This document shows positions 2,776 through 26,771 of a DNA stretch of 64,000 bases, piece after piece. The DNA is from an uncultured Prevotella sp. (lineage in GTDB: Bacteria; Bacteroidota; Bacteroidia; Bacteroidales; Bacteroidaceae). The stretch is taken from assembly GCA_946614435.1 (NCBI GenBank), contig CAMOGW010000001.1, positions 161,157 through 225,156 on the forward strand, written 5' to 3'. Position 1 is the first letter of the stretch. Each line of letters opens with the position of its first letter. Both the position numbers and the translations under genes were made by a program. A model generated the notes under the pieces. That model was given only the letters and a program-made list of their open reading frames with translations, was not told where the DNA came from and ran no database searches.

Positions 2776-3330
2776 ATGACTGACCAAGAAATTGTAAAAG
2801 GACTGATAGAACGTGACAAGCGCATAACGGAGGATTTTTTCTTCGTTAAATGCAGACCATTGTTCTGCAGTATCATGAACATCGTATTCGACTATGAAGT
2901 GGAATACGATGAAATGGTCAATGAACTCTATGTATACCTTATGGAAGACGATGCCATTAAATTACGTAACTTCGAATATCGTAGTTCCGTTTACCAATGG
3001 TTGAAGATTCTCGCCATTCGCTTTTTCATTAAGAAAAGGGCTCGACTGATAGATAATTCCAGTGGTGAGCCTCCTTATGACAAAAGAGATCAAATAGCTG
3101 CACCAAAATCAGATGTAGCAGTAGAACATGATATCGAACGGCTTTTCGAGGCCATGCCGACCAAGAGATATGTGTACGTAATCCGTCGGCTGATACTTGA
3201 AGAATGTGAACCAGAAGAACTGGCGCGGGAGATGAACATAACAACCGCGAACCTGTACAATATAAAACGGCGCTCTATGGCTCAACTGACTCGTATCGCC
3301 CTTAACGACAGAAGAAAATATGGCAAATAA
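2776..3330 (+). CDS. RNA polymerase sigma-70/ECF-like factor
   Basis: Region 2-like N-terminus and C-terminal HTH (CEPEELAREMNITTANLYNIKRRSMAQL). Confidence 0.7.
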   Translation: MTDQEIVKGLIERDKRITEDFFFVKCRPLFCSIMNIVFDYEVEYDEMVNELYVYLMEDDAIKLRNFEYRSSVYQWLKILAIRFFIKKRARLIDNSSGEPPYDKRDQIAAPKSDVAVEHDIERLFEAMPTKRYVYVIRRLILEECEPEELAREMNITTANLYNIKRRSMAQLTRIALNDRRKYGK

Positions 3331-4267
3331 AGACTTGATATCCGACGAATTGCTGGCCGCCTATCTTGATGGCAACACCAGTGAAGAGGAAACGAAGCAG
3401 GTGCTACAGGCTCTAAAGACTGATAAGCAGTTGCAAGAGGTTCTTAACGTCGCTCTTCAGGCAGAGGATGAAGCATCGATAATTCCACTGCGAAGTGAAG
3501 TTTTACCCATGCTTCAGATGGCAGCACTAAGCGGTGAAAACGTCTGCGCCGTGCTATGTGAAATCTTCATTCTCCAACATCATAATATCTCCTACGACAA
3601 AGAAAATCTTATCAATACTGCAAGAAAGAACGATTGGCTAAAGCCAGAGGGTACACCTCTCTATTGCTTAGGCAACTTGCTGGCTTATTCCGGAATGTTT
3701 GTTAGCAGGAGATATGATTCAACACTGGATGATATCCGCAGTGCACTTGAAAAAGACAATGATGTAGTTATTGGTGTTGATCGTGAAAAACTATATGCTG
3801 AGGAAATTGATCTGGAGGACTTGACCAATCATGCTGTCGTAGTAACAAAGATAGAAAGCGATGCCGTTACCATCTTTGACCCCTACGAAGATCCTTACGT
3901 CAAGAAGGTTCCTATTTCAGATTTCCTTAATGCCTGGAAGGAGTCTCATAACTACATGATTCAGGTATTCCAGTCTGTGGAAGAATATGAACCCCATCCT
4001 ATTAATGTGGACTCTATTCCCCTTAATGAGAACCTTGAAGAACTTATAGAAGCCATTGCTGAGAACGCCCATGACATTTGGGCAGAAAAGATGATAGGAC
4101 GTGGATGGTCATACGGTAAGGTGAGGGATGAAGAGAAGAAACAAGACCCTTGCATACTTCCCTATACAGCACTTCCTGATGATGAAAAGGAATACGACCG
4201 TCTCATGGCTTATAACACTATAAAGTTAGTTAAGAAATTAGGTTTTACCAGTTCTGGCAACGGCTGA
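3320..4267 (+). CDS. C39-like papain-fold peptidase domain plus C-terminal RyR domain; anti-sigma-like N-terminal helix
   Basis: C39-like pattern (ENVCAVLCE...NHAVVVTKIE...IFDPYEDPYVKKVP); RyR motif IWAEKMIGRGWSYGKVRDEEKKQDPCILPYTALPDDEKEYDRLMAYNTIKLVKKLGF; overlaps sigma gene by 11 nt. Confidence 0.7.
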   Translation: MANKDLISDELLAAYLDGNTSEEETKQVLQALKTDKQLQEVLNVALQAEDEASIIPLRSEVLPMLQMAALSGENVCAVLCEIFILQHHNISYDKENLINTARKNDWLKPEGTPLYCLGNLLAYSGMFVSRRYDSTLDDIRSALEKDNDVVIGVDREKLYAEEIDLEDLTNHAVVVTKIESDAVTIFDPYEDPYVKKVPISDFLNAWKESHNYMIQVFQSVEEYEPHPINVDSIPLNENLEELIEAIAENAHDIWAEKMIGRGWSYGKVRDEEKKQDPCILPYTALPDDEKEYDRLMAYNTIKLVKKLGFTSSGNG

Positions 4268-7731: not shown

Positions 7732-8823
7732 ATGAAATTCTGTAAGTTTTCAAAGATGCGCAATCTTCGCATCCTCGTGTACCTCAAGAAGGTTGGTTGT
7801 ATTATCTTGTATGCTTTCTTTATCCTGTGCTTCATCACAGGCTGTTACAACATCTGTCATCGCCCGTTTAGCGGCTTCGTCCATTCTGTCATTCTCGATG
7901 ACCGTTATGACCGCTACTATCACAAGGAAGAACTCAACGAACACATCACCTTCTATAGCAATGGTGCTCATGGCTATGTCAAGAACAACTATACCGACAA
8001 GAAGGTGCTTCGTGATGTCAAATGGGTCATTAAATCAGATAACATGGAAGACACATTGGCGTGTTATGCAAGCAACGGCTTCCGTGGTTTCCTCGATGTT
8101 CGCACTGGCCGTTCTGTTATCCCCGCCGAACGTTATACAAAAGCGTGGCTTTTCTCTGAAGGACTTGCTGCAGTAATGGAGAAAGATAGCACCATTAAGT
8201 TTATCGATACTCATGGCCAGGTGGTCATCAGTAATAAGGACTTCCGCTATCCTGTTTTCTCTTATGGTTATCTTTTCTATGACAGTCTTTGCGCTATGAC
8301 TGATACATCAGGCAAATGGGGCATCATCAACAGAAATGGCGACTGGGTTGTTCGTCCCGAATACGATGGTATCGCACATGTGCAGACAGGACATTGGAAA
8401 CTGAGCAAGAATGAACAAAAAGGCCTGCTTGATAAGAAAGCTAACCCCATTCTCCCACTGGAGTATCGTGATATCAACGTGATGGAACAGGGCATTTCGG
8501 TTGTATTTGATGACTACTCTATGCAGATGATGACTCTCGACGGATCCCTGAAGTATCAGTTCGTCTCTGGAGATATTGATGATATTTATTACACTACTCA
8601 AGAGACAAATGAGATGGGGGATGACATACGTAAGTTGACACCATGCAAGGCCTATTCCACCTATGCAGGCCGCTGCGGCTTGCTCAGTCCAGAGGGAAAG
8701 CCATTGACGAAACCCGATTTCACTTCTATTACTAGCATCGGCCCCAACCTCTACTATTGTGTTTACGATTTTACAAACACAGGTATTATCCTCGATGACA
8801 AAGGGAATCATGTAAACGAGTAA
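7732..8823 (+). CDS. WG-repeat protein with N-terminal signal/TM
   Basis: GKWGIINRNGDWVVRPEYDGI-type repeats; hydrophobic N-terminus. Confidence 0.75.
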   Translation: MKFCKFSKMRNLRILVYLKKVGCIILYAFFILCFITGCYNICHRPFSGFVHSVILDDRYDRYYHKEELNEHITFYSNGAHGYVKNNYTDKKVLRDVKWVIKSDNMEDTLACYASNGFRGFLDVRTGRSVIPAERYTKAWLFSEGLAAVMEKDSTIKFIDTHGQVVISNKDFRYPVFSYGYLFYDSLCAMTDTSGKWGIINRNGDWVVRPEYDGIAHVQTGHWKLSKNEQKGLLDKKANPILPLEYRDINVMEQGISVVFDDYSMQMMTLDGSLKYQFVSGDIDDIYYTTQETNEMGDDIRKLTPCKAYSTYAGRCGLLSPEGKPLTKPDFTSITSIGPNLYYCVYDFTNTGIILDDKGNHVNE

Positions 8824-8874
8824 TATGTAATCATATGAATCATGAAAAAGCATGAGCTGATAAGGCTCTCTCAT

Positions 8875-8909
8875 AACCCAGCTTTGATAGATAAAGTCAA
8901 AGTTGGGTT
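8875..8909. terminator. Bidirectional hairpin between convergent operons
   Basis: AACCCAGCTTTGA / TCAAAGTTGGGTT inverted repeat. Confidence 0.55.
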
Positions 8910-8998
8910 AATGCCCGATGGAGCATGTTGTATGAAAAGAAGTCTAAATTCCTCATGACCTCCTCAATGTGCTTATATGATATTTCATTAATTGTTTA

Positions 8999-10042
8999 TT
9001 ATTTGAAAAGTGATTTTGACATGTCTGCGAGAACCATATTCCTAAACAACCAATGAGCCATTCCACCAGGAATGCGTAAAACACGTTTATTGTTGAGATC
9101 CTCTATGTAAATCGGCCTAATACGCCAACTTGAGTTATAGCGATTTTGCCAGTCATACATACAATATTCCCACCATTCTCTATCTCCTCGCCACCATTCT
9201 CCTGTTACATATCCATGGTTTAATCCCCATTTTGTAGAATCTAACGCATCTGCAGAACCACATTGGTTATAAACGTATTTAGGAGCCATGCCAAGATCAA
9301 TTACTTTACCTAATGACACACGACAAATAATTAATGCTTTGTAAGTATTACTCCTAGCATAATATTCTGCTGTACTACGTATGGGGGCAAAATAAATTCC
9401 ATTGCCTGCAAAATTTCCTCCACCGACCCTCCATATTCCGTCATACCAACTCTTTGAACCGATACGTCCAGGACTTTGACAGATACTTACACTGGCAGAT
9501 TGCTCTGTTCCATGATATAAGGTAAGTGCAGGCACAATGGTATCTATCACTGTCCAGAAAACACTCTCAGCAAGTGAAAGCAGGTAGTGCCATCCATATT
9601 TGACCAGTCTTAAAGGTAACAAAAGTAACCACGTGATAAAATTAGCACCGCCTTCTTTAGATGAAGTTGGGTCGAAAATTTCACCCATGTAATTAAAGAA
9701 CTCAAAACTGCTATGAACAACTATGTTATAGAAGAAAGCATTGACAAAGCGGAGAGGTGTTAGTACCACATAAAGAGGAATCTTCATAACAGTCCAGAAA
9801 CCGCGCATGAATTTGTTAAACCCATCTGAACCATGATGCCTCTTATAAAGTGGTCTCCAAGGCTTTGACAAATGGCGTTGCAACCCATTTAGGAAACTGA
9901 AGAGAAAAGATAGTACCCTGAAAAAAGCATAATATAACACTCCTAACACCGGGACACTTCGTCGCAATAACAGTCTAAGCAGAATGAGACCTACTACAAT
10001 GATAACACCCCAGAAACCAAGTTCTATAAGTTCATTGTCCAT
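8999..10042 (-). CDS. Membrane-anchored PARP-like ADP-ribosyltransferase
   Basis: N-terminal TM segments; LYHGT (H), GNGIYFAPIRSTAEYYA (Y), WEYCMYDWQNRYNSSWRIRPIYI (E) = H-Y-E triad. Confidence 0.75.
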   Translation of the reverse strand: MDNELIELGFWGVIIVVGLILLRLLLRRSVPVLGVLYYAFFRVLSFLFSFLNGLQRHLSKPWRPLYKRHHGSDGFNKFMRGFWTVMKIPLYVVLTPLRFVNAFFYNIVVHSSFEFFNYMGEIFDPTSSKEGGANFITWLLLLPLRLVKYGWHYLLSLAESVFWTVIDTIVPALTLYHGTEQSASVSICQSPGRIGSKSWYDGIWRVGGGNFAGNGIYFAPIRSTAEYYARSNTYKALIICRVSLGKVIDLGMAPKYVYNQCGSADALDSTKWGLNHGYVTGEWWRGDREWWEYCMYDWQNRYNSSWRIRPIYIEDLNNKRVLRIPGGMAHWLFRNMVLADMSKSLFK

Positions 10043-10047
10043 GATAC

Positions 10048-10275
10048 CTAATCAATATATACTATCTTCCGTCCGCTAATCTCACCCTCATAGACTTTTT
10101 CACCCTGAACATAAATAGTGCCATTCCCATTGTCATAGTCAAAATGGGCTTCTCCTTCTCTGTCCGTATAAACATCTTTAGTACAACCACGGAAGAATCC
10201 TTTAAAGACTATTCCTACTTTCTTGTAATAAGCAGGTTTCCCTGTTCTTTTTTCAAACACTTGAACTGTAAACAT
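10048..10275 (-). CDS. Small predicted beta-rich protein
   Basis: 75-aa ORF in operon context. Confidence 0.5.
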   Translation of the reverse strand: MFTVQVFEKRTGKPAYYKKVGIVFKGFFRGCTKDVYTDREGEAHFDYDNGNGTIYVQGEKVYEGEISGRKIVYID

Positions 10276-10330
10276 AATTTATTTGGATTAATTTTAATAA
10301 TGCTCATCTCCATTTTACCTTTTGCTGGTT

Positions 10331-11221
10331 TTATGAATCAGGAAGATCGTTAAGATTTACAACGATTCCCTTTTCATCCTTTATCGTGGACGATACTATA
10401 GACCTAATAGAACCCAAAATATCTCCCAACTTGCACTTATTTAGGAACTTTCTTGGAATAGTAATTTGTGCACCGACTCGTCTATCACTCCAAAATGCGC
10501 CAGATTCAATCATGTCCACTGATGACGGAATACATAAAAACTTTAAACTGTCGCATCCTTGAAAAGCCCCTTGCCCAATGCAAGACACGGACTTTGGTAT
10601 AATAACACTTGTAAGAGCCTTGCAGCCATCAAATGTATTGTCACTGATACATGTTATATAATCTGGAATGGAAACGGTTGTTAATTTTGCACAGCCTTCA
10701 AAGGCACTCTTCCCAATGTGATTCACAGAGCTCGGAATTTTCACATTAGTAAGAGCTGAGCAATAAGCGAATGTACCGTCGCTTATGCTTGTTATGGTAT
10801 CAGGAATGACAATAGATGCGAGTTTATTACAATTCTCAAAAGCTCCAACTCCAATGTGGGTTACGGAACTTGGTATTTTTATACTTGTGAGTCCTATGCA
10901 ATCCTGAAATGCTGAATCACCAATTATTGTGACTGTTTCTGGAATAGAAACCGATAACAACCCACGACAATCCCTAAAAGCATCCCGGCCTATTGCTGTT
11001 ATCCTTTGGCCATCCATGTAAGGAGGAATATCAATAATTCCGGTAAAATCCTGCATAGTACAAAATACATTTCCGTATTCCACCCGCAGTGGAAGATTGG
11101 GCTGCGGATTCGACATCTGAGGGGATTCTTTAATTTGAATCCCTTTAGGAGAAATCCCACAATAGATGCACTTCCCGTTTCTTAAGATTAACTGCTTTCC
11201 GCAGTTTTTACATATTGCCAT
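10331..11221 (-). CDS. Zinc ribbon + BspA-type leucine-rich repeat protein
   Basis: MAICKNCGKQLILRNGKCIYCG; repeats IPSSVTHIGVGAFENCNKLASIVIP. Confidence 0.85.
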   Translation of the reverse strand: MAICKNCGKQLILRNGKCIYCGISPKGIQIKESPQMSNPQPNLPLRVEYGNVFCTMQDFTGIIDIPPYMDGQRITAIGRDAFRDCRGLLSVSIPETVTIIGDSAFQDCIGLTSIKIPSSVTHIGVGAFENCNKLASIVIPDTITSISDGTFAYCSALTNVKIPSSVNHIGKSAFEGCAKLTTVSIPDYITCISDNTFDGCKALTSVIIPKSVSCIGQGAFQGCDSLKFLCIPSSVDMIESGAFWSDRRVGAQITIPRKFLNKCKLGDILGSIRSIVSSTIKDEKGIVVNLNDLPDS

Positions 11222-11240
11222 AGTTTCTTTGTTTTTTTAA

Positions 11241-12026
11241 TTATCTACCTTTAGCGAATTCAGAGTTGCTGACATCCTCCGTTGTGGCCAAGGCAAACTC
11301 AACGATTTCAAAATCATAGTTTTTTAAGAGAGTATAGAATGCTTTTGATACCACCTTGGGGTCATTCTTAAACACGCCGCATCCCCACTTTCCAAGGATC
11401 AAAACCTCAACCAATTCCTTTGCTGCCACATCTATAATTTTCTTGATACGCGAATAAATGATTTGCTCATATACCTCGGATGGAAAGCTATCATACCTGA
11501 ACAACTCAGGTGCAGCACAAGTTATAACATCCACCTTATACCAATCTTTTTTATCCATCATCTTTGGAACAATTGGTCCTGTTCGTTCATCAGTCTTGAA
11601 TACTACTACATCGGGTGTGTAAATCAAGTCATCGTTACCCATATAATCCATCTCTCCATTCCTTATTTGTCTTTTATGTTGGTTATAGAATGGCTCTCGC
11701 ATAGCTTCAAGGCAAGGATATAGGGTGGAACATCTGCACAGAGCCTCTTCTTGAGCATTAGCATAGAAAGGATTACCACCAATTGAGCGATTGTTCGCAT
11801 AGTTTAACACTGCGGTCTTTTTGCCTTTGTATGATTTGGCTGCCTCGAAACTTCTTTTACCTGAGCAGACATAGATGGTTTTGCTCTCATTTACGATCGG
11901 CTGATCGATATTCTCTTCATGGGCAACAATATACTGCCTTTGAATAGAACTTCTTACAGCCTCTATTAATTCTGGAATTGACTCATATTGCTTTTTCGTA
12001 TCAGTCATCACTTCATAATTACTCAT
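11241..12026 (-). CDS. PARG-like macrodomain protein, TIGR02452-like
   Basis: TAVLNYANNRSIGGNPFYANAQEEALCRCSTLYPCL signature; C-terminal LILGKWGCGVFKNDP. Confidence 0.85.
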   Translation of the reverse strand: MSNYEVMTDTKKQYESIPELIEAVRSSIQRQYIVAHEENIDQPIVNESKTIYVCSGKRSFEAAKSYKGKKTAVLNYANNRSIGGNPFYANAQEEALCRCSTLYPCLEAMREPFYNQHKRQIRNGEMDYMGNDDLIYTPDVVVFKTDERTGPIVPKMMDKKDWYKVDVITCAAPELFRYDSFPSEVYEQIIYSRIKKIIDVAAKELVEVLILGKWGCGVFKNDPKVVSKAFYTLLKNYDFEIVEFALATTEDVSNSEFAKGR

Positions 12027-12066
12027 CTTACTATACTTTTTAGTTTAACAGATATTACATATGATT

Positions 12067-12612
12067 TTAGAAATCCCATTGGTTATAACCGGCAGTTTTT
12101 TCTATACAGTGCGCTCCAACAATAGGCCAAACGCCAGTAAGTAGATTGAATAACAATATCCATGTCTCGTCGTAATTGTACAGCACTAGATATCCCACCA
12201 CGGCAAATATGATTTCAACGGGGTAATGAATCCATTCATAATATATACGCCATGTTTTATTTCTGCTGGAAAAATGCCCTCGAACAGCATAGACCATTGT
12301 TATAACAGACCAGAGAACAATTGATCCATTTACACTATACATTGTGGCGATTCCCCACCATGATCCGTTCTTTGTTTCGTATTCTGCGAAACTTATAGGA
12401 ATAATAATAGCTAACACCATGAAAACCAAAAAGATTTGGTATATCAGATTTGGCTTATTGTCTTTACTGTCATATCGTTGCCTTTTCCTTTGTGAATAAC
12501 CATTATACTGCCCCGAATTATTTGCACAATCCCCATCAGGAACTGCGCCACAATATACACATTTCCCATTTCTTATAATGAGACCTTTCCCGCAATTTTT
12601 ACATATTGCCAT
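12067..12612 (-). CDS. Zinc ribbon + multi-TM protein
   Basis: MAICKNCGKGLIIRNGKCVYCG and several hydrophobic helices. Confidence 0.75.
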   Translation of the reverse strand: MAICKNCGKGLIIRNGKCVYCGAVPDGDCANNSGQYNGYSQRKRQRYDSKDNKPNLIYQIFLVFMVLAIIIPISFAEYETKNGSWWGIATMYSVNGSIVLWSVITMVYAVRGHFSSRNKTWRIYYEWIHYPVEIIFAVVGYLVLYNYDETWILLFNLLTGVWPIVGAHCIEKTAGYNQWDF

Positions 12613-12650
12613 ATATTGATCTGTTAGAATTTATTGTATTATCAATTACC

Positions 12651-13433
12651 CTACATATTATTTCGGTAAAGACTTTCTGCATAAGAAATCTTTGAAGATG
12701 CTACAGAACTGCCAAGTTGATAGGCTTTCTGATAACAATTTCTTGCCTTGATGATAAATAATAACTTAGCTTTCTTAATAGGCTTCATGTTTCCATGCCC
12801 TTTCACTTTCGGAAGGGTTTCTGCAGCATTGATTAACTCATCCCCCATGCTAATCCATGAATTGATTTCGCTTTCGCGTAATTTTTCCCGTGTATCTGCT
12901 AATGCAGCATTACTCTCCATCAATTGCTGATTGGTTTGTCCAAGTTCGTTGTCAAGAGATGACACTTGATTGTCTAATCTTGAGATTTGCTCATCCTTTT
13001 CACGGATGATGTCTTTTAATTCATCAACCTCTTTCTGTTTTTGTTCAATGGTTGCCTTCAACTTGGCAATAACCATCTTTGTACTCTTGTCAAACTTCTC
13101 TAACTCTTCTGCACGTTCAATTTTCTCTTTGATAAGAGTAATATCCTGGGCAATCTCATCTGCCTTTTGACGATTATCATCACTTGTATTCTCTTCTAAG
13201 GAGTGCTCAAGTGAAGCAGTTCGACCTGATATAGAATTAATAGATGCGAAGATATTGTCAATTAATTCTTGCGCTTCCACATTGTTCTCCAATGCTTTTG
13301 CGCGATCTTGTCGCAACATCTCACATTCTCTCTGCAATTCCGACAAATCCATATTGGATGTGTCTTTCTGCCCACAAGACTGGAGTAAAAGCCCAGCCAG
13401 ACCTAATACAATGATTATTTTACAAGTTTCCAT
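12651..13433 (-). CDS. Coiled-coil lipoprotein
   Basis: Lipobox LLLQSC at N-terminus; long heptad-rich region. Confidence 0.7.
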   Translation of the reverse strand: METCKIIIVLGLAGLLLQSCGQKDTSNMDLSELQRECEMLRQDRAKALENNVEAQELIDNIFASINSISGRTASLEHSLEENTSDDNRQKADEIAQDITLIKEKIERAEELEKFDKSTKMVIAKLKATIEQKQKEVDELKDIIREKDEQISRLDNQVSSLDNELGQTNQQLMESNAALADTREKLRESEINSWISMGDELINAAETLPKVKGHGNMKPIKKAKLLFIIKARNCYQKAYQLGSSVASSKISYAESLYRNNM

Positions 13434-13984
13434 CCTTCAAATGTTATTTCTATTTCGTTAGTTATTGTTTTTATTCTAACTTTCCCCCTCCCAAGTTCCT
13501 GAGAATGTATCTCACCGTTTGATGGATTATATGAGAAAGTGTATTTTTTCGTAATCTTGGAAGAATATACGTTCATTGTATAATCGCTGCCTTCATTGTA
13601 TATTTTAATTGTAGCATTTACATTCTCACTACCATTCATCATTCTTACGAAATAATTACCAGTGATGTTCTGTGGATATGAACCTGTCTCAGTTGTTCCT
13701 ACTACGGTTGTTTCCTTCGGAAGGGGTTTCTCTTTTGAGAATACAGAATTAAACAGCATGTAAAACAGGATCAGCAAGATTATGAAAATCGCGCCAATAA
13801 CCCATTTCTTAATACTTTCATCTACCTTATATTCTCGACTTTTACCTTGTCGATTATTCGCAGTACCGTATTTGGGCTTTGCCTCTCCTCCTTCTCCGAC
13901 AGGATCGCTAGTTTTTTTATGACAATATATACATTCCCCGTTGCTCAATATCAGTGGATTACCACAATGTTTACAATACGCCAT
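13415..13984 (-). CDS. Zinc ribbon + single TM + beta domain protein
   Basis: MAYCKHCGNPLILSNGECIYC; TM WVIGAIFIILLILFYML. Confidence 0.75.
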   Translation of the reverse strand: MAYCKHCGNPLILSNGECIYCHKKTSDPVGEGGEAKPKYGTANNRQGKSREYKVDESIKKWVIGAIFIILLILFYMLFNSVFSKEKPLPKETTVVGTTETGSYPQNITGNYFVRMMNGSENVNATIKIYNEGSDYTMNVYSSKITKKYTFSYNPSNGEIHSQELGRGKVRIKTITNEIEITFEGWKLVK

Positions 13985-14030
13985 AATATCAGTATTTACA
14001 ATTTGACCTTTGTATATTTAAGCCTACTTT

Positions 14031-15146
14031 TTATGTTATCGGTAAATCCATGTAATTTACGACATTTCCGTATTCATCTTTTAAAATAGTATTCTCACAT
14101 TCCTCACGTTTACCAATAGCCCAACATATCGTTTTTTGATTTAAATGCTTTTTCGGGAGAATGATCTGTCTTGAGCTTCTTCTTGGGTTTGAGAAGGCCC
14201 CGTATTCTATTATTTTCACTGATGACGGGATGGTTATTGACGACAAACTGTCGCAATCGCTAAATGCTTCACTACCAATGCGAGTCACTGAGTTCGGAAT
14301 GACTATTGATGCTAGGTTTTCACATAGGTAGAAGGATCTATCTCCGATGTTAGTTACAGAGTTCGGAATGGCTATTGATGTTAGGTTATGACAACGCGAG
14401 AAAGCCGCATCTCCGATTTTAGTTACAGAGTTCGGAATGATTAAACTAGTCAGCCCGGTATCTGCGAAAGCCCCACCTCCGATGTTTGTTACAGAGTTCG
14501 GTATGACTATTGATGTTAGGTTATGACAACCCGAGAAAGCTCCGTTCCCGATTGTAGTTACAGAGTTCGGAATAACTATTGATGTTAGGTTTTCACATTG
14601 GCTGAAAGCATTATCTCCAATGTTAGTTACAGAGTTCGGAATGACTATTGATGTTAGTTTATGACAGCCTGAGAAAGAATGTATCCCTAAGTATGTAACA
14701 GAATCTGGGATATTCACATTAGCAAGATTAAAGCAACCGGAAAATGCCTCGTCCCCGATAATTGAAACTGTTTCAGGAATAGAGACTGACAATAACCCCT
14801 TGCAACGCAGGAAAGCCTCCCTGCCAATAGCTGTTACCCGTTGCCCATCTATGCAGGACGGTATATCAATAGAGCCAGTAAAGTTTTCCATAGTACAAAA
14901 AACATTTCCGTATTCTATACGAAGCGGAAGGGGAGGCGATGGCACATTTTGATTAAGTAAAGCCGATCCACAATTACTACAGAATTTTGCACCTGATGGA
15001 TGCGGGGTCCCACAATTCTTGCAGGTAAATACAGTTTGGGGTTGGCTATTATTACTGGATGCCTGTTGTTCCTGGGATAATCCGCAATAGATGCATTTCC
15101 CCCCACTTAAAATTAGCGGTTTGCCGCAATGTTTACATGTTGCCAT
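14031..15146 (-). CDS. Double zinc ribbon + BspA-type leucine-rich repeat protein
   Basis: MATCKHCGKPLILSGGKCIYCG and FTCKNCGTPHPSGAKFCSNCG; repeated IVIPNSVTNIGDNAFSQCENLTS. Confidence 0.85.
   Translation of the reverse strand: MATCKHCGKPLILSGGKCIYCGLSQEQQASSNNSQPQTVFTCKNCGTPHPSGAKFCSNCGSALLNQNVPSPPLPLRIEYGNVFCTMENFTGSIDIPSCIDGQRVTAIGREAFLRCKGLLSVSIPETVSIIGDEAFSGCFNLANVNIPDSVTYLGIHSFSGCHKLTSIVIPNSVTNIGDNAFSQCENLTSIVIPNSVTTIGNGAFSGCHNLTSIVIPNSVTNIGGGAFADTGLTSLIIPNSVTKIGDAAFSRCHNLTSIAIPNSVTNIGDRSFYLCENLASIVIPNSVTRIGSEAFSDCDSLSSITIPSSVKIIEYGAFSNPRRSSRQIILPKKHLNQKTICWAIGKREECENTILKDEYGNVVNYMDLPIT
14290..14702. repeat. Near-identical 69-bp coding repeats within the leucine-rich repeat gene
   Basis: GAGTTCGGAAT starts at 14290, 14359, 14428, 14494, 14563, 14632. 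Confidence 0.85.
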
Positions 15147-15154
15147 ATCTATAA

Positions 15155-16099
15155 TTATTTATGTCTTAACGATTCGAGCAGTCCTGCCCATCCTAATTTC
15201 TCAAATCTTTCTTTCTGGAGGCGATAGCCGTCACCGTAAATACGGTCTTCAGATTCATACATCCGTTTGAGCAAGTACTTTGACAAGTCAGTATTTATTC
15301 TTTGATATACCCAGGCACAGCCCAAATTACAGAACCCCTCACATTCTTCGTCAGTAACTTCTCGACCATATAATACCAGCCATGAATGTAACAATTCGTG
15401 TGCTAATACACCTTGAAAGTGATCCTCAGGGAGGCCACAGGTTATATCAATGTGAAAATTGGAAAAGATGCGTAATCCAGACCTTGAATAATGTATGCGA
15501 CCTTCGGCGCCCTCCATTAAATCTTTATTCTTCAATTTTATAGGGATGTCTTCTGGAACTCCATTAATACCGAATGATTTAAACATCGAGAGCACCTTGG
15601 CTCGGCATGCCTCTATTTGAGTAGATGTAGTAACTGATGACTTGGCGCATACGCTACACAATACTGCATTTTTGCCAATTTGCTTAGCTGATCCAGATAT
15701 AATACGACCGCATGTGTCGCAATGTTTAGTTTTCTCTGTACCATGCGTTGTATGTGCACAATTTCCCCAATCATCTATAGTATAAGTTCCATCTATTGGT
15801 TTTCCGCATACAGAGCAGATTTTCTCCACATGTTTGTGAAAGCAATCTTTATGATAGTGTTTCCCCTTCGAATCATAATAGGAACCGGAGATGGGCTTAC
15901 GACAAACGGCACATACTTTCTTTCCCGAAGCAGGGTTACACTCAGTATGATACAGATTCCCCCTATACGTCACAAAAGAACCTGTCAACTTTGCACCGCA
16001 ATATGAACAGACAAGACAGTCCTTGTGATAACGCTTCCCTCCGAGAGAAACGCCATCACCTTTTATAAACTTCTTGCATTTAGCGCATCGATTAATCAT
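15155..16099 (-). CDS. LIM-domain zinc metallopeptidase, DA1-like
   Basis: Several LIM-type Cys/His modules; VLAHELLHSWLVLYGREVTDEECEGFCNLGCAWVY (HExxH). Confidence 0.8.
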   Translation of the reverse strand: MINRCAKCKKFIKGDGVSLGGKRYHKDCLVCSYCGAKLTGSFVTYRGNLYHTECNPASGKKVCAVCRKPISGSYYDSKGKHYHKDCFHKHVEKICSVCGKPIDGTYTIDDWGNCAHTTHGTEKTKHCDTCGRIISGSAKQIGKNAVLCSVCAKSSVTTSTQIEACRAKVLSMFKSFGINGVPEDIPIKLKNKDLMEGAEGRIHYSRSGLRIFSNFHIDITCGLPEDHFQGVLAHELLHSWLVLYGREVTDEECEGFCNLGCAWVYQRINTDLSKYLLKRMYESEDRIYGDGYRLQKERFEKLGWAGLLESLRHK

Positions 16100-16125
16100 A
16101 TCAAGAATTACAATCTTTATAGCTC

Positions 16126-17085
16126 TTATTCTGGATGATATCCAAACCTTTCAATATTTGCCAACCAAGCTGCGCAATTCACCACAAATCTATCTGTACC
16201 AGCTTTAACAAATAAATCATTGTATAATCTTGTCCAACCACCATCAACTAAGCACTTCTTGCCACAGGTTTCATAATAGGCTGTTACTATCAGTCCATCA
16301 GAACTATAGACTAATGGCCTAAGCCCTTTATTCATCTTTACATTTGAGATGGTTACTCCCTCATAGAAATTTTGAATTCCAGTTGTAATGTAATGGTTCT
16401 TTATAATTCCTGGTGACTGGGGGGTGTTCTGAATGGTGAGCACATGATCTGCCATATATTCTCCACTCATTTGGGTGTTGAATAGATAAGAAAGCATAAC
16501 ATTTGCATCAGCATACAATGGATAATTGTCCGACCAGATGTAAACACCCCCACCTCTGTTTAAATGCTCATATACTAAAGTGTAGTCATTTTGATTCATT
16601 AGACATTTCTCACCTGAAATGATCCATAATTGACTTCTTTCATTAAGTAGTTCTTTAACATCAGCATACGGGAATCTGCCTTGACTATAACCATCAAAAA
16701 CAATCACGGAAAACCCTTTCCTTCCCAATGCTGCTATTGGACTTGTCTGGTTTTTAAAGTTCATCCTTGATAGGTCAACAACTACAATCTTATACCCTTT
16801 AAAGGCCCCGTCCTTTGCAAGATCATACTGTGAACCTTGGGGATTGCCATACCGATCGGTTTTGGCTCCAGAGATAATGCTTTGTCCGGCATATTGTGAA
16901 TAAGGACTCTGTCCTCCTTGATTTACAAAACTTCTTCTTTGTATAATAGGTCTGGATTTCTTGATGCCTGATTTAGGTTGTTCCACAGGAATGTCCTGTG
17001 TTGAAGACGCTACTTCTGCACCACAGTATATACATTTTCCTTTATTTACGATTAGCGGCTTCCCGCAGTCCTTACATGTTGCCAT
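16126..17085 (-). CDS. Zinc ribbon + glutamine amidotransferase-like (ThuA/DUF4350-like) domain
   Basis: MATCKDCGKPLIVNKGKCIYCG; VYEHLNRGGGVYIWSDNYPLY-type fold by eye. Confidence 0.55.
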   Translation of the reverse strand: MATCKDCGKPLIVNKGKCIYCGAEVASSTQDIPVEQPKSGIKKSRPIIQRRSFVNQGGQSPYSQYAGQSIISGAKTDRYGNPQGSQYDLAKDGAFKGYKIVVVDLSRMNFKNQTSPIAALGRKGFSVIVFDGYSQGRFPYADVKELLNERSQLWIISGEKCLMNQNDYTLVYEHLNRGGGVYIWSDNYPLYADANVMLSYLFNTQMSGEYMADHVLTIQNTPQSPGIIKNHYITTGIQNFYEGVTISNVKMNKGLRPLVYSSDGLIVTAYYETCGKKCLVDGGWTRLYNDLFVKAGTDRFVVNCAAWLANIERFGYHPE

Positions 17086-17111
17086 AAATGATATATTTGT
17101 AGTTAACTTGA

Positions 17112-18446
17112 TTAATTGACTACGATTTCTCCGTCTAATACCTTAATATAATAAGGAATACTCATGGATTGATCTTTAATTACAACCTTGCGCAGCGAAG
17201 CATTCTCCATGGGAATCGATCTGAAATGCTGGTGCTCTTTATTCTCAATGCTCTGCACCATTATCCTTCCAAGTGATTTATGAGTAACGACCAAGACTCT
17301 TTTACCATGTGCAGTTTGTGAATGAAGCATTTCTTCCAAGAAAGAATTTGCCCGTCCTTGGAGGGTTAAAAAAGTGTCTGTACTGCCTGGAATAATATAG
17401 TTCTGATCATTAACATACTTTTCATGTTCCTCTTTGGGAATATCAACTCTATTTACTCCCTCCCAAGAACCGTAGTTGGCCTCTATCAGCCTCTCATCTT
17501 CCTCAATCTTTCCTCCTGCTACACTTTGGATTTCCCTTGCAGTGTCAAGGCAGCGTCTCATTGGGCTACAATAGATAATGTCCAGACTACCAACAGTTTC
17601 TTGAAGGAATTTTCCGACATTTCGGGCTTCTATTCTCCCTCTGGTATTGATAGGCTCATTGGGAGAACCGCTGCCTATGAATCTGTCTTGAGCATTTGCA
17701 TCAGTTTGCGCATGACGCATTAAGAAGAAACCATCTTTCAAACTCTCCATCTCAAGAGATTTCAACGTATATTCTCGAACCTTTGCGTCATTACTATCTT
17801 TCCACGTTCTTAGGAATTGCTTTTCTTGCCATGGCATCAGATAGTCGTGTTTGCTCGTGATACCGTAATAGTCAGGGACTTCTATCTGATTTGACAAACC
17901 CGTTTGATAATACAGCACACATGTCCGTATTTCTTTTGCGCCGATGCCTATCAGACGCTGTTTGAATTGTTGCATTGTTTTCCCAGAGTGGTATTCTCCT
18001 GCCACGAGCAAAACCTTTTGTAACAATTCTTTGGGAATATTAATTGGATAGTACCAGTCTTCTCCAATTCTTTTACCTTGTTCATCATACAGGTATTTTC
18101 TATCCAATGCCAATAATGGCGTCTCTTTCATATAATAGGAAAAGATACTGCCATAGATAGCACCACCCCGACCGATACCAACAATTATCGTGGGTTCGTA
18201 TAACTCTTCTGCAGTTCCATTCTTCATAGTTTCTGCAGTATTCTTTGCATACTTGTAGGCATGTCGCCATGGAAATCTACGATACAGTTTAATAACGCTT
18301 TTCTTCTCCTTTTCGCCCTTCTTCGTTTTTTGTGGAATGCGAAATCCTATATAAAACCAGTCATTTAGTAACTTACTGGCGATATAAAGGAAAATCGCGC
18401 CTATGGCCGAAGCTGCCAAATTTTCAATAATACCTTCAATTATCAT
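17112..18446 (-). CDS. Phosphoribosyltransferase-like + histidine phosphatase fusion
   Basis: PTIIVGIGRGGAIYG...KVLLVAGEYHSGKTM; FFLMRHAQTDANAQDRF, SPMRRCLDTAREI, VVTHKSLGRI. Confidence 0.75.
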   Translation of the reverse strand: MIIEGIIENLAASAIGAIFLYIASKLLNDWFYIGFRIPQKTKKGEKEKKSVIKLYRRFPWRHAYKYAKNTAETMKNGTAEELYEPTIIVGIGRGGAIYGSIFSYYMKETPLLALDRKYLYDEQGKRIGEDWYYPINIPKELLQKVLLVAGEYHSGKTMQQFKQRLIGIGAKEIRTCVLYYQTGLSNQIEVPDYYGITSKHDYLMPWQEKQFLRTWKDSNDAKVREYTLKSLEMESLKDGFFLMRHAQTDANAQDRFIGSGSPNEPINTRGRIEARNVGKFLQETVGSLDIIYCSPMRRCLDTAREIQSVAGGKIEEDERLIEANYGSWEGVNRVDIPKEEHEKYVNDQNYIIPGSTDTFLTLQGRANSFLEEMLHSQTAHGKRVLVVTHKSLGRIMVQSIENKEHQHFRSIPMENASLRKVVIKDQSMSIPYYIKVLDGEIVVN

Positions 18447-18465
18447 AATTGTACTAAATATTGTT

Positions 18466-18738
18466 TTAGGAGAGTAATGCCATTATACGTTTTGCATCGC
18501 TTTTGACGAAACCTCGTGCCACGATGGGACCGCCACCTGTACTTTCGATAATGATGTCTGCGAAGAGCAAACCTGCTTTTATGCGGACACTAGCAATTCT
18601 GTGTCGCTTGATGACAATGGACTTATAACCAACGATAGTACCTTTGTAATAGATGACTCTAGTCTTGTGAATCTCAATCTTATCAGGAAATATAGTATTC
18701 CCTCCTGATGAGATACGGCTTGCCTCGAATAATTCCAT
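18466..18738 (-). CDS. Small predicted beta-rich (PH-like?) protein
   Basis: 90-aa ORF in operon; alternating beta pattern. Confidence 0.45.
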   Translation of the reverse strand: MELFEASRISSGGNTIFPDKIEIHKTRVIYYKGTIVGYKSIVIKRHRIASVRIKAGLLFADIIIESTGGGPIVARGFVKSDAKRIMALLS

Positions 18739-18750
18739 TGTATAAAATCA

Positions 18751-19284
18751 TTAATCCAATTCTGCCACGATACCTAACGCAAAAAATAATCCGACAACGC
18801 CGATAAGGCCAGGAATCAAGACTGCCCACCAGCTAATAAACATACAGACAACACCCACAACAAACATGAATCCGCCCCAAAGCTGAATCATGTTCAGCCC
18901 GTGACTCATATTTTCACGTATTTGCTCTTCATCAGCGTCGCTTGTTTCTTGTTTATCCAAGTTGATTACACCGAAACTGAAGATAGTTAGCACAATGGCT
19001 AAGACTAACATGCCCACAGAAACTATACATCCAGGCCATGGCTTGAAGATAAGCAATAAAATACCTAACAACATAGCCACCATAATTGAAATGATGGTTT
19101 TAGTCAAAGTGGTTTGAGTCCAGGTCTTCTTCTTTGCAGTTAAAGAAGTTGTCATCTTCTTGACCCATGATGATTTTGGAGGTTCAACTCCTCTTGAAGG
19201 CCCTCCTTGAATGGGTTCTCCACAATAGACGCATTTCCCGTTTCTTACAATGAGGGGCTTGTGACACTTTCTGCATTCAGCCAT
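18751..19284 (-). CDS. Zinc ribbon + multi-TM protein
   Basis: MAECRKCHKPLIVRNGKCVYCG; hydrophobic helices. Confidence 0.75.
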   Translation of the reverse strand: MAECRKCHKPLIVRNGKCVYCGEPIQGGPSRGVEPPKSSWVKKMTTSLTAKKKTWTQTTLTKTIISIMVAMLLGILLLIFKPWPGCIVSVGMLVLAIVLTIFSFGVINLDKQETSDADEEQIRENMSHGLNMIQLWGGFMFVVGVVCMFISWWAVLIPGLIGVVGLFFALGIVAELD

Positions 19285-19350
19285 TATATAACGATTTTAA
19301 ATGTTAGGCGGTTGTGTTTTGTATAAAGACACAACCGCCTTGATTCATAT

Positions 19351-20016
19351 TTAGAGTACATCAGATGCAGTCTCTACAGAAACGGTCTTACCCATCAGCT
19401 CAAGCAATTTTGCCATATTGGTACCTGACGACAGTTCTGCGTTTGGACTAGCCATCTCGTTAATCTCAGATTTAGGAACAGGTTTCAACTCCTTATATTT
19501 TGCATCTTCTGCCCCCCATAGGAATAACTTGATATGATTGTCGGCGAGATCCTTCATCAATGATTTTACATCGTTAACACCAAATGTAGACTTGGTTGAA
19601 GAATGAATGTCTTTTGTCGGGGCATCTGTAAATACAACCACAATCTTGTGGGCTCTACTACGCCATTTGGATGTCTTTGACGCATAAATGATAGCGTCAA
19701 GAGTTGATTCTGGTGCATCGCCACCGCCACACATGCTGATCCCAGCTACTTGAGACTGGAATGCAGCCACGTCTGAAACGAAGTCATTATTGTTCTGTAC
19801 TTCCTCACCAATTTCCATGTCGCCATATCCTAAGGCGCGCATGCGCCAGTCGATGGTAACACTCTGATCAGCATTCAGCCCTTCTACAAATTTGTTCACA
19901 TGTTCCTTTACATTTCCAATGCAGTCACTCATTGAACCTGTACAGTCAAAGCAGAATACGACATCTGCTACAGCTTTTGTCTTCATAACTGATGAAGCAG
20001 GCTTTTGTAATCCCAT
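19351..20016 (-). CDS. vWA domain protein (TerY-like)
   Basis: MIDAS FCFDCTGSMSD; MGLQK N-terminus. Confidence 0.8.
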   Translation of the reverse strand: MGLQKPASSVMKTKAVADVVFCFDCTGSMSDCIGNVKEHVNKFVEGLNADQSVTIDWRMRALGYGDMEIGEEVQNNNDFVSDVAAFQSQVAGISMCGGGDAPESTLDAIIYASKTSKWRSRAHKIVVVFTDAPTKDIHSSTKSTFGVNDVKSLMKDLADNHIKLFLWGAEDAKYKELKPVPKSEINEMASPNAELSSGTNMAKLLELMGKTVSVETASDVL

Positions 20017-20047
20017 AATTAAAAAGTTTTAAATTTATAAATAATGT

Positions 20048-21217
20048 TTAAGCAATCTCTATTGTGAAAGTAGCAACTTCACAACTCTTACCCGTACTGT
20101 AAATAGCAACCTTGTCACCATTCTTGACGGGTGACGGCTTGTTCGGCATTTCCACACCATTGAGAAGAATCTTGTTCTTTGCCATTCCATTAGCTGGACA
20201 GCAGATGAACAACTCTGAACCATCCTGACTTAAGCTGAGGGTGGCGTAATTCTTATCTAAGTATTTGTAGACCTCGTTGCCGTCAGCATCAGTAGTTCTG
20301 CCGAAAAGTTCCTTGAAATACTTCCGGCCATAACCGTTGCCTGGAACCATAATCAATACTTCTCCACTTGAAGAGCGAAGTTTGGCCTTTTTGGGCGGTT
20401 CACTTTTGCCTTCTAGCGTTTTTAGGATTTCATCAATAGAAGGACGGGCACTTTGATTTGGTTCGAGACAACGTTCAATGATGTCATTAAACGGCTTAGA
20501 CAAATCAGTATTAATCTTATTTGGAGTGACATAATCCTTATTCTTTACCCATTTCTCCCAAAGTTCCGGCTCATAAAGGCGAGCTTCACCCGTATCTGAA
20601 AAAACAAAGGGGTTACATCCTGTTAGCAATTCGCATAAGATAATGCCGAGGGTAAAGATGTCCGATTTGAAAGAAACCTTGTTGCCGTCAATATTTCCAT
20701 AGCCAGGCGTACCAACGTAACGTACAACCTTTCCATTGGGTATAGACCAGTCGAAATCCGTCAGGATAATACGGATGCCGGCCTTTCTTGAAGAGTCACT
20801 GATTGTCATGATTTGCTCAGGCTTCAAGTCTTGATGAATGATATTTTTCTCATGAACAGCCTTAATGATGTAACATAGCTGAATGGCAACATCCAGACGC
20901 TCGTCAATGTCATCGCATGTATCAAGCCAACCACGTAAGTTTGTTGCACCGGGGATGAATTCTTTCACCTGAAAGTATCTTCCGTCAATCTCAAAATCCT
21001 CAATAATGGTTTCCGTCTTTCCACCCAATGCTTTCAATATAGGAATCATTGTCTTCTGGTTTTTCTTGAAATCGTCATAGTCTGCGGACATTTCTGTCGG
21101 GTCTTTATATAATTTCAAGAAATAGTCTTTCCCGCTTTTACGGACTTTATACGCATCGCAAAAGGCTCCTTTATTGAGTTCCTCAACGATATCATAATCC
21201 TTAAATCTTGTTTCCAT
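20048..21217 (-). CDS. Ser/Thr protein kinase with C-terminal FHA-like domain
   Basis: HQDLKPEQI, LTDFDWS, GTPGYGN, SDIFTLGIILCELLTG; C-terminal FHA-like beta domain. Confidence 0.85.
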   Translation of the reverse strand: METRFKDYDIVEELNKGAFCDAYKVRKSGKDYFLKLYKDPTEMSADYDDFKKNQKTMIPILKALGGKTETIIEDFEIDGRYFQVKEFIPGATNLRGWLDTCDDIDERLDVAIQLCYIIKAVHEKNIIHQDLKPEQIMTISDSSRKAGIRIILTDFDWSIPNGKVVRYVGTPGYGNIDGNKVSFKSDIFTLGIILCELLTGCNPFVFSDTGEARLYEPELWEKWVKNKDYVTPNKINTDLSKPFNDIIERCLEPNQSARPSIDEILKTLEGKSEPPKKAKLRSSSGEVLIMVPGNGYGRKYFKELFGRTTDADGNEVYKYLDKNYATLSLSQDGSELFICCPANGMAKNKILLNGVEMPNKPSPVKNGDKVAIYSTGKSCEVATFTIEIA

Positions 21218-21256
21218 ACTTTACAAATCTTTGTTATGGTTATTCAAACCTTTCGA

Positions 21257-21928
21257 TTAGAAAGTCGTTCCGCCTCCACTGATTAATCCAGAAACGGTTT
21301 TTCCGATAGTTGTCATTAGAGCAGAAAAATCCATCTTCTTGTAATCATCTTCAGGATTCTCCAATTGTACAACATCTGCTCTGGGAATCTTCGTGAGAAT
21401 ATCATAGACAGGATCCTTCATGCCCCATAAGAATAGTTTGATATGATTCACATTCAGTTCCTGAGTAAGGACATCAAGGTCAGCGTCAGCTTTGTCTATT
21501 TCGCTGATGGTCTTTTCATTGACTCCTTTTGCAGCGGCATCAGTGAAAACTACCACAATTTTATGGCAGTTATCGCGCCATTCAGATTTGGACGCATACC
21601 AGATGGCATCTAATGTTGATTCAGAATCATCTCCGCCTGTGTATTCCTTAGCTTCCATGCCTGCAATTTGGGCTTTCAACTCAGCTTCGGTTGTGACAAA
21701 CGGACGGTCGTTGATAAGGTACTCTTCATCAACCTCAAAATCGCGATAGCCCAAACATCTGGCCCTCCAGTCGAGTGCAACGTCATTGGTGGCAAAGCCA
21801 TCAATCAGTTTGCCTACATTCTCCTTGACAGAGTTAATAATTTCTGTCATTGAACCTGTGCAGTCGAAACAAAAAACGATGTCGGCTACACCCTTTACTT
21901 TCACATGTGATGCTTTTTGTAATCCCAT
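21257..21928 (-). CDS. vWA domain protein (TerY-like)
   Basis: MGLQK; FCFDCTGSMTE. Confidence 0.8.
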   Translation of the reverse strand: MGLQKASHVKVKGVADIVFCFDCTGSMTEIINSVKENVGKLIDGFATNDVALDWRARCLGYRDFEVDEEYLINDRPFVTTEAELKAQIAGMEAKEYTGGDDSESTLDAIWYASKSEWRDNCHKIVVVFTDAAAKGVNEKTISEIDKADADLDVLTQELNVNHIKLFLWGMKDPVYDILTKIPRADVVQLENPEDDYKKMDFSALMTTIGKTVSGLISGGGTTF

Positions 21929-21963
21929 AATGATAATGTTTTAAATTTATTAAATAATATTAT

Positions 21964-22644
21964 TTAAATCTTCTTGATTCTAACATGCGACAAGTCATAT
22001 ACCAATTCCTTGACCACTGGCTCTTTACCAGCGAAAGCATTGCCTGATGAAACGGTAACGGCCAAACGCGTCATCAGTTCATTAAAACTGATACCAGAGA
22101 AGTTACTAACCACATTTACCTCACCCTTTGGACATTTTGTGAATTGTGAGTAATAGGGACATTGCTCGCCATAATAGATGATTTGGATATGAGAATTCAC
22201 AATCTTCTCCATCAATTTGTCAAATCGACCAGCACTTCTACTTGGGGAATAACCACCTTTAAGGTCTTCGTCCGTAAAAACGACGACAACCCTTTGGGCT
22301 CCTGTTCTCCAACTGGCATTACTGATGGCAAAATCAATCGCACCAGGTGTAAATTCGTCTCCAGATACTTCTCTTTTTTCTAATTTCTTTTTGAAGCGAC
22401 TCGTATCGTTGGCTAAATCTACAAAAATGAATTCGTCAGCAGAGTAGTTCAACAATCCGATTTGCCAGTCAACAGGCGACAGTCCTTGAACTCCCGCTTC
22501 CAATGATGCCACGAAATTACTGACAGTGTTTCTTACACCATTAATACAATCAGTCATAGAGCCCGAATTGTCAATGCAAAACATAATATCGGCCAACTTA
22601 TGTTGCGACATCATTGTCTTATTCTGTTTAATCTGTAGTCCCAT
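21964..22644 (-). CDS. vWA domain protein (TerY-like)
   Basis: MGLQ; FCIDNSGSMTD. Confidence 0.8.
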   Translation of the reverse strand: MGLQIKQNKTMMSQHKLADIMFCIDNSGSMTDCINGVRNTVSNFVASLEAGVQGLSPVDWQIGLLNYSADEFIFVDLANDTSRFKKKLEKREVSGDEFTPGAIDFAISNASWRTGAQRVVVVFTDEDLKGGYSPSRSAGRFDKLMEKIVNSHIQIIYYGEQCPYYSQFTKCPKGEVNVVSNFSGISFNELMTRLAVTVSSGNAFAGKEPVVKELVYDLSHVRIKKI

Positions 22645-22657
22645 AATAATACATATA

Positions 22658-24244: not shown

Positions 24245-24298
24245 ACCTTAAATGATATATTGAATGATTTTTTTTATTCTTCTATAGGATTTAACAAG

Positions 24299-26088: not shown

Positions 26089-26096
26089 TATCTTTG
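26089..26096 (+). promoter_or_regulatory. Bacteroidetes -7 box TATCTTTG
   Basis: Matches TAnnTTTG, about 25 nt upstream of ATG 26121. Confidence 0.6.
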
Positions 26097-26120
26097 CAAG
26101 ATAAAATATACATATCTGAC

Positions 26121-26771
26121 ATGATTTGGCAATTCATCATAAATGGCCTGATAACAGGCATCCTCTATTCGCTCTTGGCGATTGGGTTTGCCTTGGTCTA
26201 TAATACCACGAGAATCTTCCATATTGCAGCAGCTGGCATCTATGTCTTTGCGGCCTATATGTTCTGGTTCTTTGTGGCCAAAGTCGGATTGCCGGTCTTT
26301 GTGGGTTCCCTCGTGGCTATAGTATTGACAATGCTACTGAGCCTATTAACGGAACTATGTGTTTATCATCCTCTGAAAAACAAGAAAGCATCGCTCAATG
26401 TGGCCATGATAGCTTCTATAGGAGTCATGACGGTGGTTATTAACACCATCGCCATGTGCTTTGGTAATGAGACAAAAGTTGTTGAGAATGCCATTTTGCA
26501 GCCACTTACCTTTGGCGATATCATCATCACGACACCCCAAAAGTATCAAGCCTTAATAGGCATAGCTGTAATTGCGGCATTTATGATTATCCTTCAACGT
26601 ACCAATTGGGGCTTGAGATTACGTGCATTGAGTGCCGACGAAACTCTCTTCGAGACATTAGGCTACATTCCTCGACATACCGAATACTGTCATCAACTTT
26701 GTGACGACTCTGATTTTGCTTTTAGTATCATTCCCATTGGCTTCAAAATTTGCAAAGAGAAATCTTGGTGA
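26121..26771 (+). pseudogene. C-terminally truncated branched-chain amino acid permease (LivH-like)
   Basis: IINGLITGILYSLLAIGFALVYNTTRIFHIAAAGIYVFAAY; conserved sequence stops at LFETLGY. Confidence 0.7.

What the first reader, a model, noticed from the sequence alone, without database searches (positions are those of the whole stretch)
8999..10042. Membrane-anchored PARP-type ADP-ribosyltransferase with complete H-Y-E triad
LYHGT (H), GNGIYFAP (Y) and WEYCMYDWQNRYNSSWRIRPIYI (E) line up with the three PARP catalytic motifs. The N-terminal ~170 aa are hydrophobic/amphipathic segments, so the transferase is probably tethered to the membrane. It is the last gene of an operon that also encodes a PARG-like protein, which points to a writer/eraser pair.
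Basis: partly seen in the sequence, partly recalled or inferred. Interest (0 to 1): 0.8.

Follow-up and report, generated by a model that had tools for sequence, protein, structure and literature searches.

The report
Membrane-anchored bacterial PARP-like ADP-ribosyltransferase
This rumen-type Prevotella relative carries a rare, membrane-anchored relative of the human PARP enzymes (which tag molecules with ADP-ribose), and its real conserved partner appears to be a tiny 75-residue protein encoded just upstream rather than the nearby ADP-ribose "eraser" gene.

Summary
The ORF at 8999-10042(-) is real: 347 aa, the last of 19 closely packed minus-strand genes. Its C-terminal half is a PARP-family domain. 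Pfam PARP scores 31.5 bits against a cut-off of 26.7; all nine first-aligned family members hit PARP, and the catalytic-domain profile's 60 best PDB hits are all PARP-family chains. H177, Y217 and E292 are invariant in ten homologues. H and Y are secure. E292 is likely but unproven: E282 is also invariant, the C-terminal half alone is not significantly PARP-like, and both AlphaFold models are low-confidence. The N-terminal half is membrane-associated, with the enzyme probably cytoplasmic.

The family is rare (6/301 genomes of the family group, 3/393 of the order, 1/396 of the phylum). Most homologues are "signal peptide - SH3_3 - TM - PARP" proteins. The window copy lacks the SH3 domain. Each of the three SH3-less copies follows a 75-aa gene by 1-9 nt; none of eight SH3-bearing copies does, and that gene was absent from 90 other family genomes.

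The writer/eraser idea is weak: only 2 of 11 PARP-positive genomes encode a microbial PARG homologue, and the window's has a changed signature (GGN, not GGG). Best reading: a membrane-tethered, stress- or conflict-activated ADP-ribosyltransferase. New variant of a known kind.

The parts
8999..10042 (-). PARP-domain membrane protein, 347 aa (the finding)
   Evidence: ORF; Pfam PARP; homologues
9965..10021 (-). N-terminal transmembrane segment, residues 8-26 (acidic residues before, arginines after: N-out/C-in)
   Evidence: hydropathy and flanking charges
9533..9955 (-). helical, partly amphipathic linker region, residues 30-170, with family-invariant residues (P61 W62 R63, T95 P96 R98 N101 A102, E130 G131)
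   Evidence: conservation; all-helix in the AF2 model with pLDDT roughly 43-82
9002..9532 (-). PARP-type catalytic domain, residues 171-347
9512..9514 (-). His177 of LYHGT (catalytic H)
   Evidence: invariant in 10 homologues; the PDB alignment with PARP12 places this stretch on its 'qLFHGTs' motif
9392..9394 (-). Tyr217 of GNGIYFAP (catalytic Y)
   Evidence: invariant; aligned to GSGIYFS of PARP4
9167..9169 (-). Glu292 of WEYCMYD, probable third catalytic residue
   Evidence: invariant; falls on the catalytic E of canonical PARPs in full-length profile alignments, not significant alone
9197..9199 (-). Glu282 of TGEWW, second invariant Glu and rival third catalytic residue
10048..10275 (-). 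75-aa cytosolic-looking protein, 5 bp upstream of the PARP gene; conserved partner of the SH3-less form
   Evidence: no Pfam, PDB or NCBIfam match
11241..12026 (-). PARG_cat_microb / TIGR02452 protein (candidate eraser, not a conserved partner)
8874..8910 (.). 14-bp inverted repeat between the convergent PARP and WG-repeat genes, possible bidirectional terminator
3320..4267 (+). zf-HC2 / C39-like / RyR-domain protein after a sigma factor (2776-3330); the pair is also close to the PARP in L007

Best explanation
A PARP-family (H-Y-E class) ADP-ribosyltransferase tethered to the inner membrane with its catalytic domain in the cytoplasm. In most homologues an exported bacterial SH3 domain sits on the periplasmic side, so the fuller layout reads as an envelope sensor coupled through the membrane to an NAD+-using enzyme. 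The window copy lacks the SH3 domain and instead follows a 75-aa cytosolic-looking protein that probably controls it, as inhibitor or adaptor. When released it would transfer ADP-ribose from NAD+ to a target at or near the membrane, as a stress or conflict effector. Shown here: PARP homology, the conserved H/Y/E residues, membrane segments, SH3 architecture, and linkage to the 75-aa gene. Inferred: enzymatic activity, topology, regulation by the 75-aa protein, target, biological trigger. The PARG-like gene in the same array may reverse the modification in this strain, but it is not a conserved part of the system.
For: Pfam PARP above cut-off; all nine members of A1 hit PARP and six hit SH3_3; the 60 best PDB matches of the catalytic profile are all PARP-family chains, best PARP4 E=4e-4; H177/Y217/E292 invariant across 10 homologues; full-length profile alignment with canonical bacterial PARPs puts E292 on the catalytic Glu, score 27.0 against a shuffled maximum of 19.7; TM segment with acidic N-side and arginine C-side; the 75-aa gene lies 1-9 nt upstream in all three SH3-less loci, is not found beside the eight SH3-bearing ones, and is absent from 90 other family genomes; in L007 and L008 the pair sits with RyR and MscS genes, in L007 with TIR genes too.
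Against: No activity data. The E-motif half is not significantly similar to PARPs on its own (87 of 200 shuffles as good) and Pfam finds nothing there. AlphaFold models are poor (mean pLDDT 52 and 34). The SH3-bearing loci sit mostly among housekeeping or unrelated genes, which does not favour a defence island for the whole family. No match to any PADLOC model. SH3 is presumably periplasmic while the 75-aa protein has no signal peptide, so one does not simply replace the other.
Confidence: 0.5

Rival explanations
1. Writer/eraser pair: the PARP modifies targets and the PARG-like protein of the same array removes the modification.
For: Both genes lie in one same-strand array, 1.2 kb apart; the PARG-like protein keeps the QEE catalytic motif.
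Against: PARG_cat_microb is found in only 2 of 11 PARP-positive genomes, never near the PARP elsewhere; signature GGN rather than GGG. Published surveys also find that bacterial PARG does not track PARP (PMC4245714).
Confidence: 0.15
2. Two-gene toxin-antitoxin-like module: the 75-aa protein neutralises a membrane-bound ART toxin; the two genes move together between loci.
For: Tight coupling (1-9 nt) in three genomes whose other neighbours mostly differ; small gene first, enzyme second; the 75-aa gene was found only beside this PARP.
Against: SH3-bearing homologues have no such gene and are presumably tolerated; no known antitoxin family matches.
Confidence: 0.3
3. Catalytically dead or binding-only PARP-like domain (pseudo-enzyme) used as a membrane scaffold.
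For: E-motif region diverges strongly from PARPs; several human PARPs lack the Glu or activity (own knowledge).
Against: H, Y and E292 are invariant across sequences down to about 41% identity in the catalytic domain, which suggests that they are under selection.
Confidence: 0.15

Closest known systems
Eukaryotic PARP4, PARP10/12/13-type PARP catalytic domains
   Same: best sequence matches of the catalytic profile in the PDB (PARP4, PARP12, ZAP/PARP13, PARP10); H and Y motifs align
   Different: none of their accessory domains; the C-terminal E-motif region is divergent, with a long conserved TGEW...WE[YF]C[ML].DW...YN block and a C-terminal GG...HWLF extension
Canonical bacterial PARPs (WGR-PARP_reg-PARP_cat), e.g. 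Clostridioides difficile CD160 and Herpetosiphon aurantiacus
   Same: PARP catalytic family with H-Y-E; sporadic distribution in bacteria
   Different: those are described as WGR with or without regulatory domain, or PARP alone (PMC5966428, PMC4245714); this one is membrane-anchored, lacks WGR, and mostly has SH3_3 plus TM
PARP16 and other TM-bearing eukaryotic PARPs
   Same: PARP domain tethered to a membrane (PMC4245714 describes a C-terminal TM in PARP16 and an N-terminal TM in a sponge PARP)
   Different: opposite end of the protein for PARP16; no SH3; eukaryotic
Tox-ART-PARP toxins of polymorphic/PVC systems
   Same: bacterial H-Y-E ARTs close to PARPs (PMC3482391)
   Different: those are secreted toxin modules with trafficking domains; here an inner-membrane protein without a secretion module

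Membership tests
PARP catalytic family (PF00644) | sequence match above the family's curated cut-off | tested here: met
   31.5 bits against 26.7; 9 of 9 aligned members hit PF00644
PARP catalytic family (PF00644) | H-Y catalytic pair in HGT/S and G.G.YF motifs | tested here: met
   H177 and Y217 invariant in 10 homologues, aligned to PARP12 and PARP4 motifs
PARP catalytic family (PF00644) | catalytic Glu on the last core strand | tested here: inconclusive
   E292 invariant and aligned in full-length profile comparison, but the C-terminal half is not significant alone and E282 is an alternative
PARP catalytic family (PF00644) | ART fold | tested here: inconclusive
   AF2 models with 4 sequences are low-confidence; no fold search was run on them
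Bacterial WGR-PARP (PARP1-like) | WGR and/or PARP_reg domain N-terminal to the catalytic domain | tested here: not met
   only PARP hit in the window protein; SH3_3 in 6 homologues
Microbial PARG (PF10021) for 11241-12026 | family match above cut-off | tested here: met
   78.5 bits against 23.5
Microbial PARG (PF10021) for 11241-12026 | GGG-X6-8-QEE signature (signature from own knowledge) | tested here: not met
   GGN-X6-QEE; the catalytic QEE is present, the third Gly is not
PARP/PARG writer-eraser system | conserved co-occurrence of the two genes | tested here: not met
   2 of 11 PARP-positive genomes have PF10021; no co-location outside the window among the loci read
Known anti-phage defence system | match to a PADLOC model for the PARP | tested here: not met

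The most novel reading that the evidence does not exclude
A bacterial transmembrane receptor-enzyme: a periplasmic SH3 sensor joined through the membrane to a cytoplasmic PARP, so that envelope state controls ADP-ribosylation. A second, two-gene form has a separate 75-aa cytosolic regulator in place of the SH3 domain and lies in NAD+/cADPR-type islands (TIR, RyR, MscS), linking PARP chemistry to the bacterial cADPR signalling network.
Probability: 0.3. Interest if true: 0.7.

Novelty: new variant of a known kind. Interest (0 to 1): 0.5.

Why it matters
The two surveys of bacterial PARPs read here describe soluble WGR/PARP or PARP-only proteins of unknown role. A membrane-spanning SH3-TM-PARP lineage in gut and rumen Bacteroidales, with a second form paired with a 75-aa protein, gives a small, testable system for asking what PARPs do in bacteria: the enzyme, a candidate regulator and the catalytic residues are all named, and the relevant loci are in sequenced Prevotella.

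Tried and rejected
Writer/eraser pair as a conserved system: rejected on co-occurrence. Ungapped E-motif scan against PARP1/bacterial PARPs: failed, does not pick WEYCMYD (an earlier version timed out). E-half profile comparison: not significant. Phage, plasmid and viral-contig relatives of this PARP: none. Profile search with A1 across the order mostly found unrelated SH3_3 proteins, so it was repeated with the catalytic domain only.

Full report
What is there. It is the 3'-most of 19 minus-strand genes (8999-25717) with gaps of -19 to 66 bp, and it converges with the plus-strand WG-repeat gene (7732-8823). A 14-bp inverted repeat lies between them at 8874-8910. The window is from a 56%-complete genome of 2.06 Mb. 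The nearest relatives are rumen-type Prevotella/Bacteroidales: L007, sheep MAG, 78% identity; L008, red deer MAG, 60%; L009, Prevotella sp. P5-108, 55%.

The PARP domain is real. Pfam PARP matches residues 174-253 with 31.5 bits, above the curated cut-off of 26.7. All nine members of alignment A1 match PARP. A profile of ten catalytic domains, searched against all PDB sequences, returns PARP-family chains in all of the 60 best rows shown: PARP4 first (E=4e-4), then PARP12, ZAP/PARP13, PARP10, PARP1, tankyrases and SRO1. His177 (HGT) and Tyr217 (GxGxYF) are invariant in ten homologues, and the aligned stretches fall on the corresponding PARP12 and PARP4 motifs.

The third catalytic residue is likely but not proven. 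E292 in W-E-[YF]-C-[ML]-x-D-W is invariant, but so is E282 in T-G-E-W. Profile-profile alignment of the whole domain to canonical bacterial PARPs places E292 on the catalytic Glu (N-E-[YF]-I-V-Y), with a score of 27.0 against 19.7 for the best of 59 column shuffles (similar alignment). The significant part of that score is the Tyr region. The C-terminal half alone does no better than shuffles (87 of 200), Pfam finds nothing there, and an ungapped motif scan fails. The strand it draws over residues 290-296, which contains E292, is at most a hint.

Membrane part. Residues 8-26 form a strong hydrophobic segment (2.57), preceded by three acidic residues and followed by arginines, which by the positive-inside rule puts the N-terminus out and the enzyme in the cytoplasm (inference). 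Residues 30-170 are predicted helical at moderate confidence and contain many family-invariant positions. In six homologues (L002-L006, L009) an SH3_3 domain follows an N-terminal signal-like hydrophobic stretch and precedes the TM segments. L024 and L025 show the same layout by eye. So the fuller architecture is exported SH3 - TM - helical linker - PARP, and the window copy lacks the SH3 domain.

The real partner. A 75-aa ORF (10048-10275) ends 5 bp before the PARP start. Its homologues sit 9 and 1 nt upstream of the PARP in L007 and L008, and none is found beside the eight SH3-bearing copies. It is absent from 90 other genomes of the family group, including two with SH3-type PARPs, and from plasmids and phages. 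It has no Pfam, PDB or NCBIfam match. The SH3-less copies are not clearly one clade: in a FastTree of the catalytic domain L008 branches outside window+L007 and the closer SH3-type copies, with moderate support. Linkage is therefore the best evidence of a functional link, on three loci only.

The eraser. The 11241-12026 protein is a genuine PARG_cat_microb / TIGR02452 member with the QEE motif but GGN in place of GGG. Only two of eleven PARP-positive genomes have any PF10021 protein; L009's lies on another contig. Macro proteins occur in three of eleven. No PARG-like gene was found near the PARP in the other loci. Several of these genomes are incomplete, but the four rated at least 90% complete have none. 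Published surveys likewise found that PARG does not track PARP in bacteria (PMC4245714).

Surroundings elsewhere. L007 and L008 share, besides the 75-aa/PARP pair, an RyR-domain gene, an MscS-type channel and a homologous protein of unknown type (376 and 418 aa). L007 also has TIR-domain proteins directly before the 75-aa gene and directly after the PARP. The window carries a sigma factor plus zf-HC2/C39/RyR gene pair (2776-4267) that is also found 1.2 kb from the PARP in L007 (341 and 614 bits). RyR-domain proteins of phages degrade or bind cyclic ADP-ribose signals made by Thoeris systems (PMC13232231), so these loci may belong to NAD+-based signalling. This is suggestive only, because I could not measure how common RyR and TIR genes are in these genomes. 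The SH3-type copies L009 and L012-L015 sit mostly among housekeeping or unrelated genes.

How it most likely works. A membrane-tethered, cytoplasm-facing ADP-ribosyltransferase kept in check by its membrane/linker region and, in the SH3-less form, by the 75-aa protein; once triggered it uses NAD+ to modify a target near the membrane. Homology, residues, membrane segments, architecture and gene linkage are shown; activity, topology, regulation, target and trigger are inferred. A two-gene toxin-antitoxin-like reading of the same facts is the main rival.

Novelty. The family is rare: 6 of 301 genomes of the window's family group, 3 of 393 in the order, 1 of 396 in the phylum. Two surveys of bacterial PARPs describe WGR-containing or PARP-only proteins and no SH3-TM-PARP form in the passages read (PMC5966428, PMC4245714). 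The reviews most likely to mention such a form were not held, so prior description cannot be excluded. I rate it a new variant of a known kind.

Noticed in passing
window 10331-11221, 12067-12612, 13415-13984, 14031-15146, 16126-17085, 18751-19284 (-): Six otherwise different proteins of the same array (LRR, TM and other) begin with the same ~22-residue zinc-ribbon tag, roughly MAxCKxCGKPLIxxxGKCIYCG, as if a common module recruits them.
   Followed up: partly
window 19351-25717 (-): Three VWA proteins, a Ser/Thr kinase and two calcineurin-like phosphatases in a row, resembling TerY-P triads (PMC11090510) but with calcineurin-like (Metallophos) phosphatases in place of PP2C.
   Followed up: partly
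window 15155-16099 (-): LIM-DA1-like protein (LIM and DA1-like Pfam hits), a combination better known from plants.
   Followed up: no
window 17112-18446 (-): Phosphoribosyltransferase-like domain fused to a histidine phosphatase domain.
   Followed up: no
window 2776-4267 (+): Sigma factor followed by a zf-HC2 / C39-like / RyR-domain protein; the same pair lies 1.2 kb from the PARP in L007.
   Followed up: partly
L007:3203-5523 and L008:10763-12966: MscS-type channel plus a homologous protein of unknown type (376 and 418 aa), next to RyR genes and near the 75-aa/PARP pair in both loci.
   Followed up: partly
L008:9044-10480: 478-aa protein just after the PARP, no Pfam match; its N-terminus looks TIR- or DUF4062-like by eye.
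   Followed up: no
L055-L069 (IMG/VR contigs): Fifteen viral contigs encode relatives of a canonical WGR-type bacterial PARP, at least ten of them with an intact catalytic region.
   Followed up: no
G795:C1 108139-109465 (L025, L045): An SH3-PARP homologue split between two reading frames, apparently a frameshifted gene.
   Followed up: no
window 26094-26771 (+): Start of a branched-chain amino-acid permease-like ORF (by eye) that runs into unrelated sequence, probably a gene remnant.
   Followed up: no
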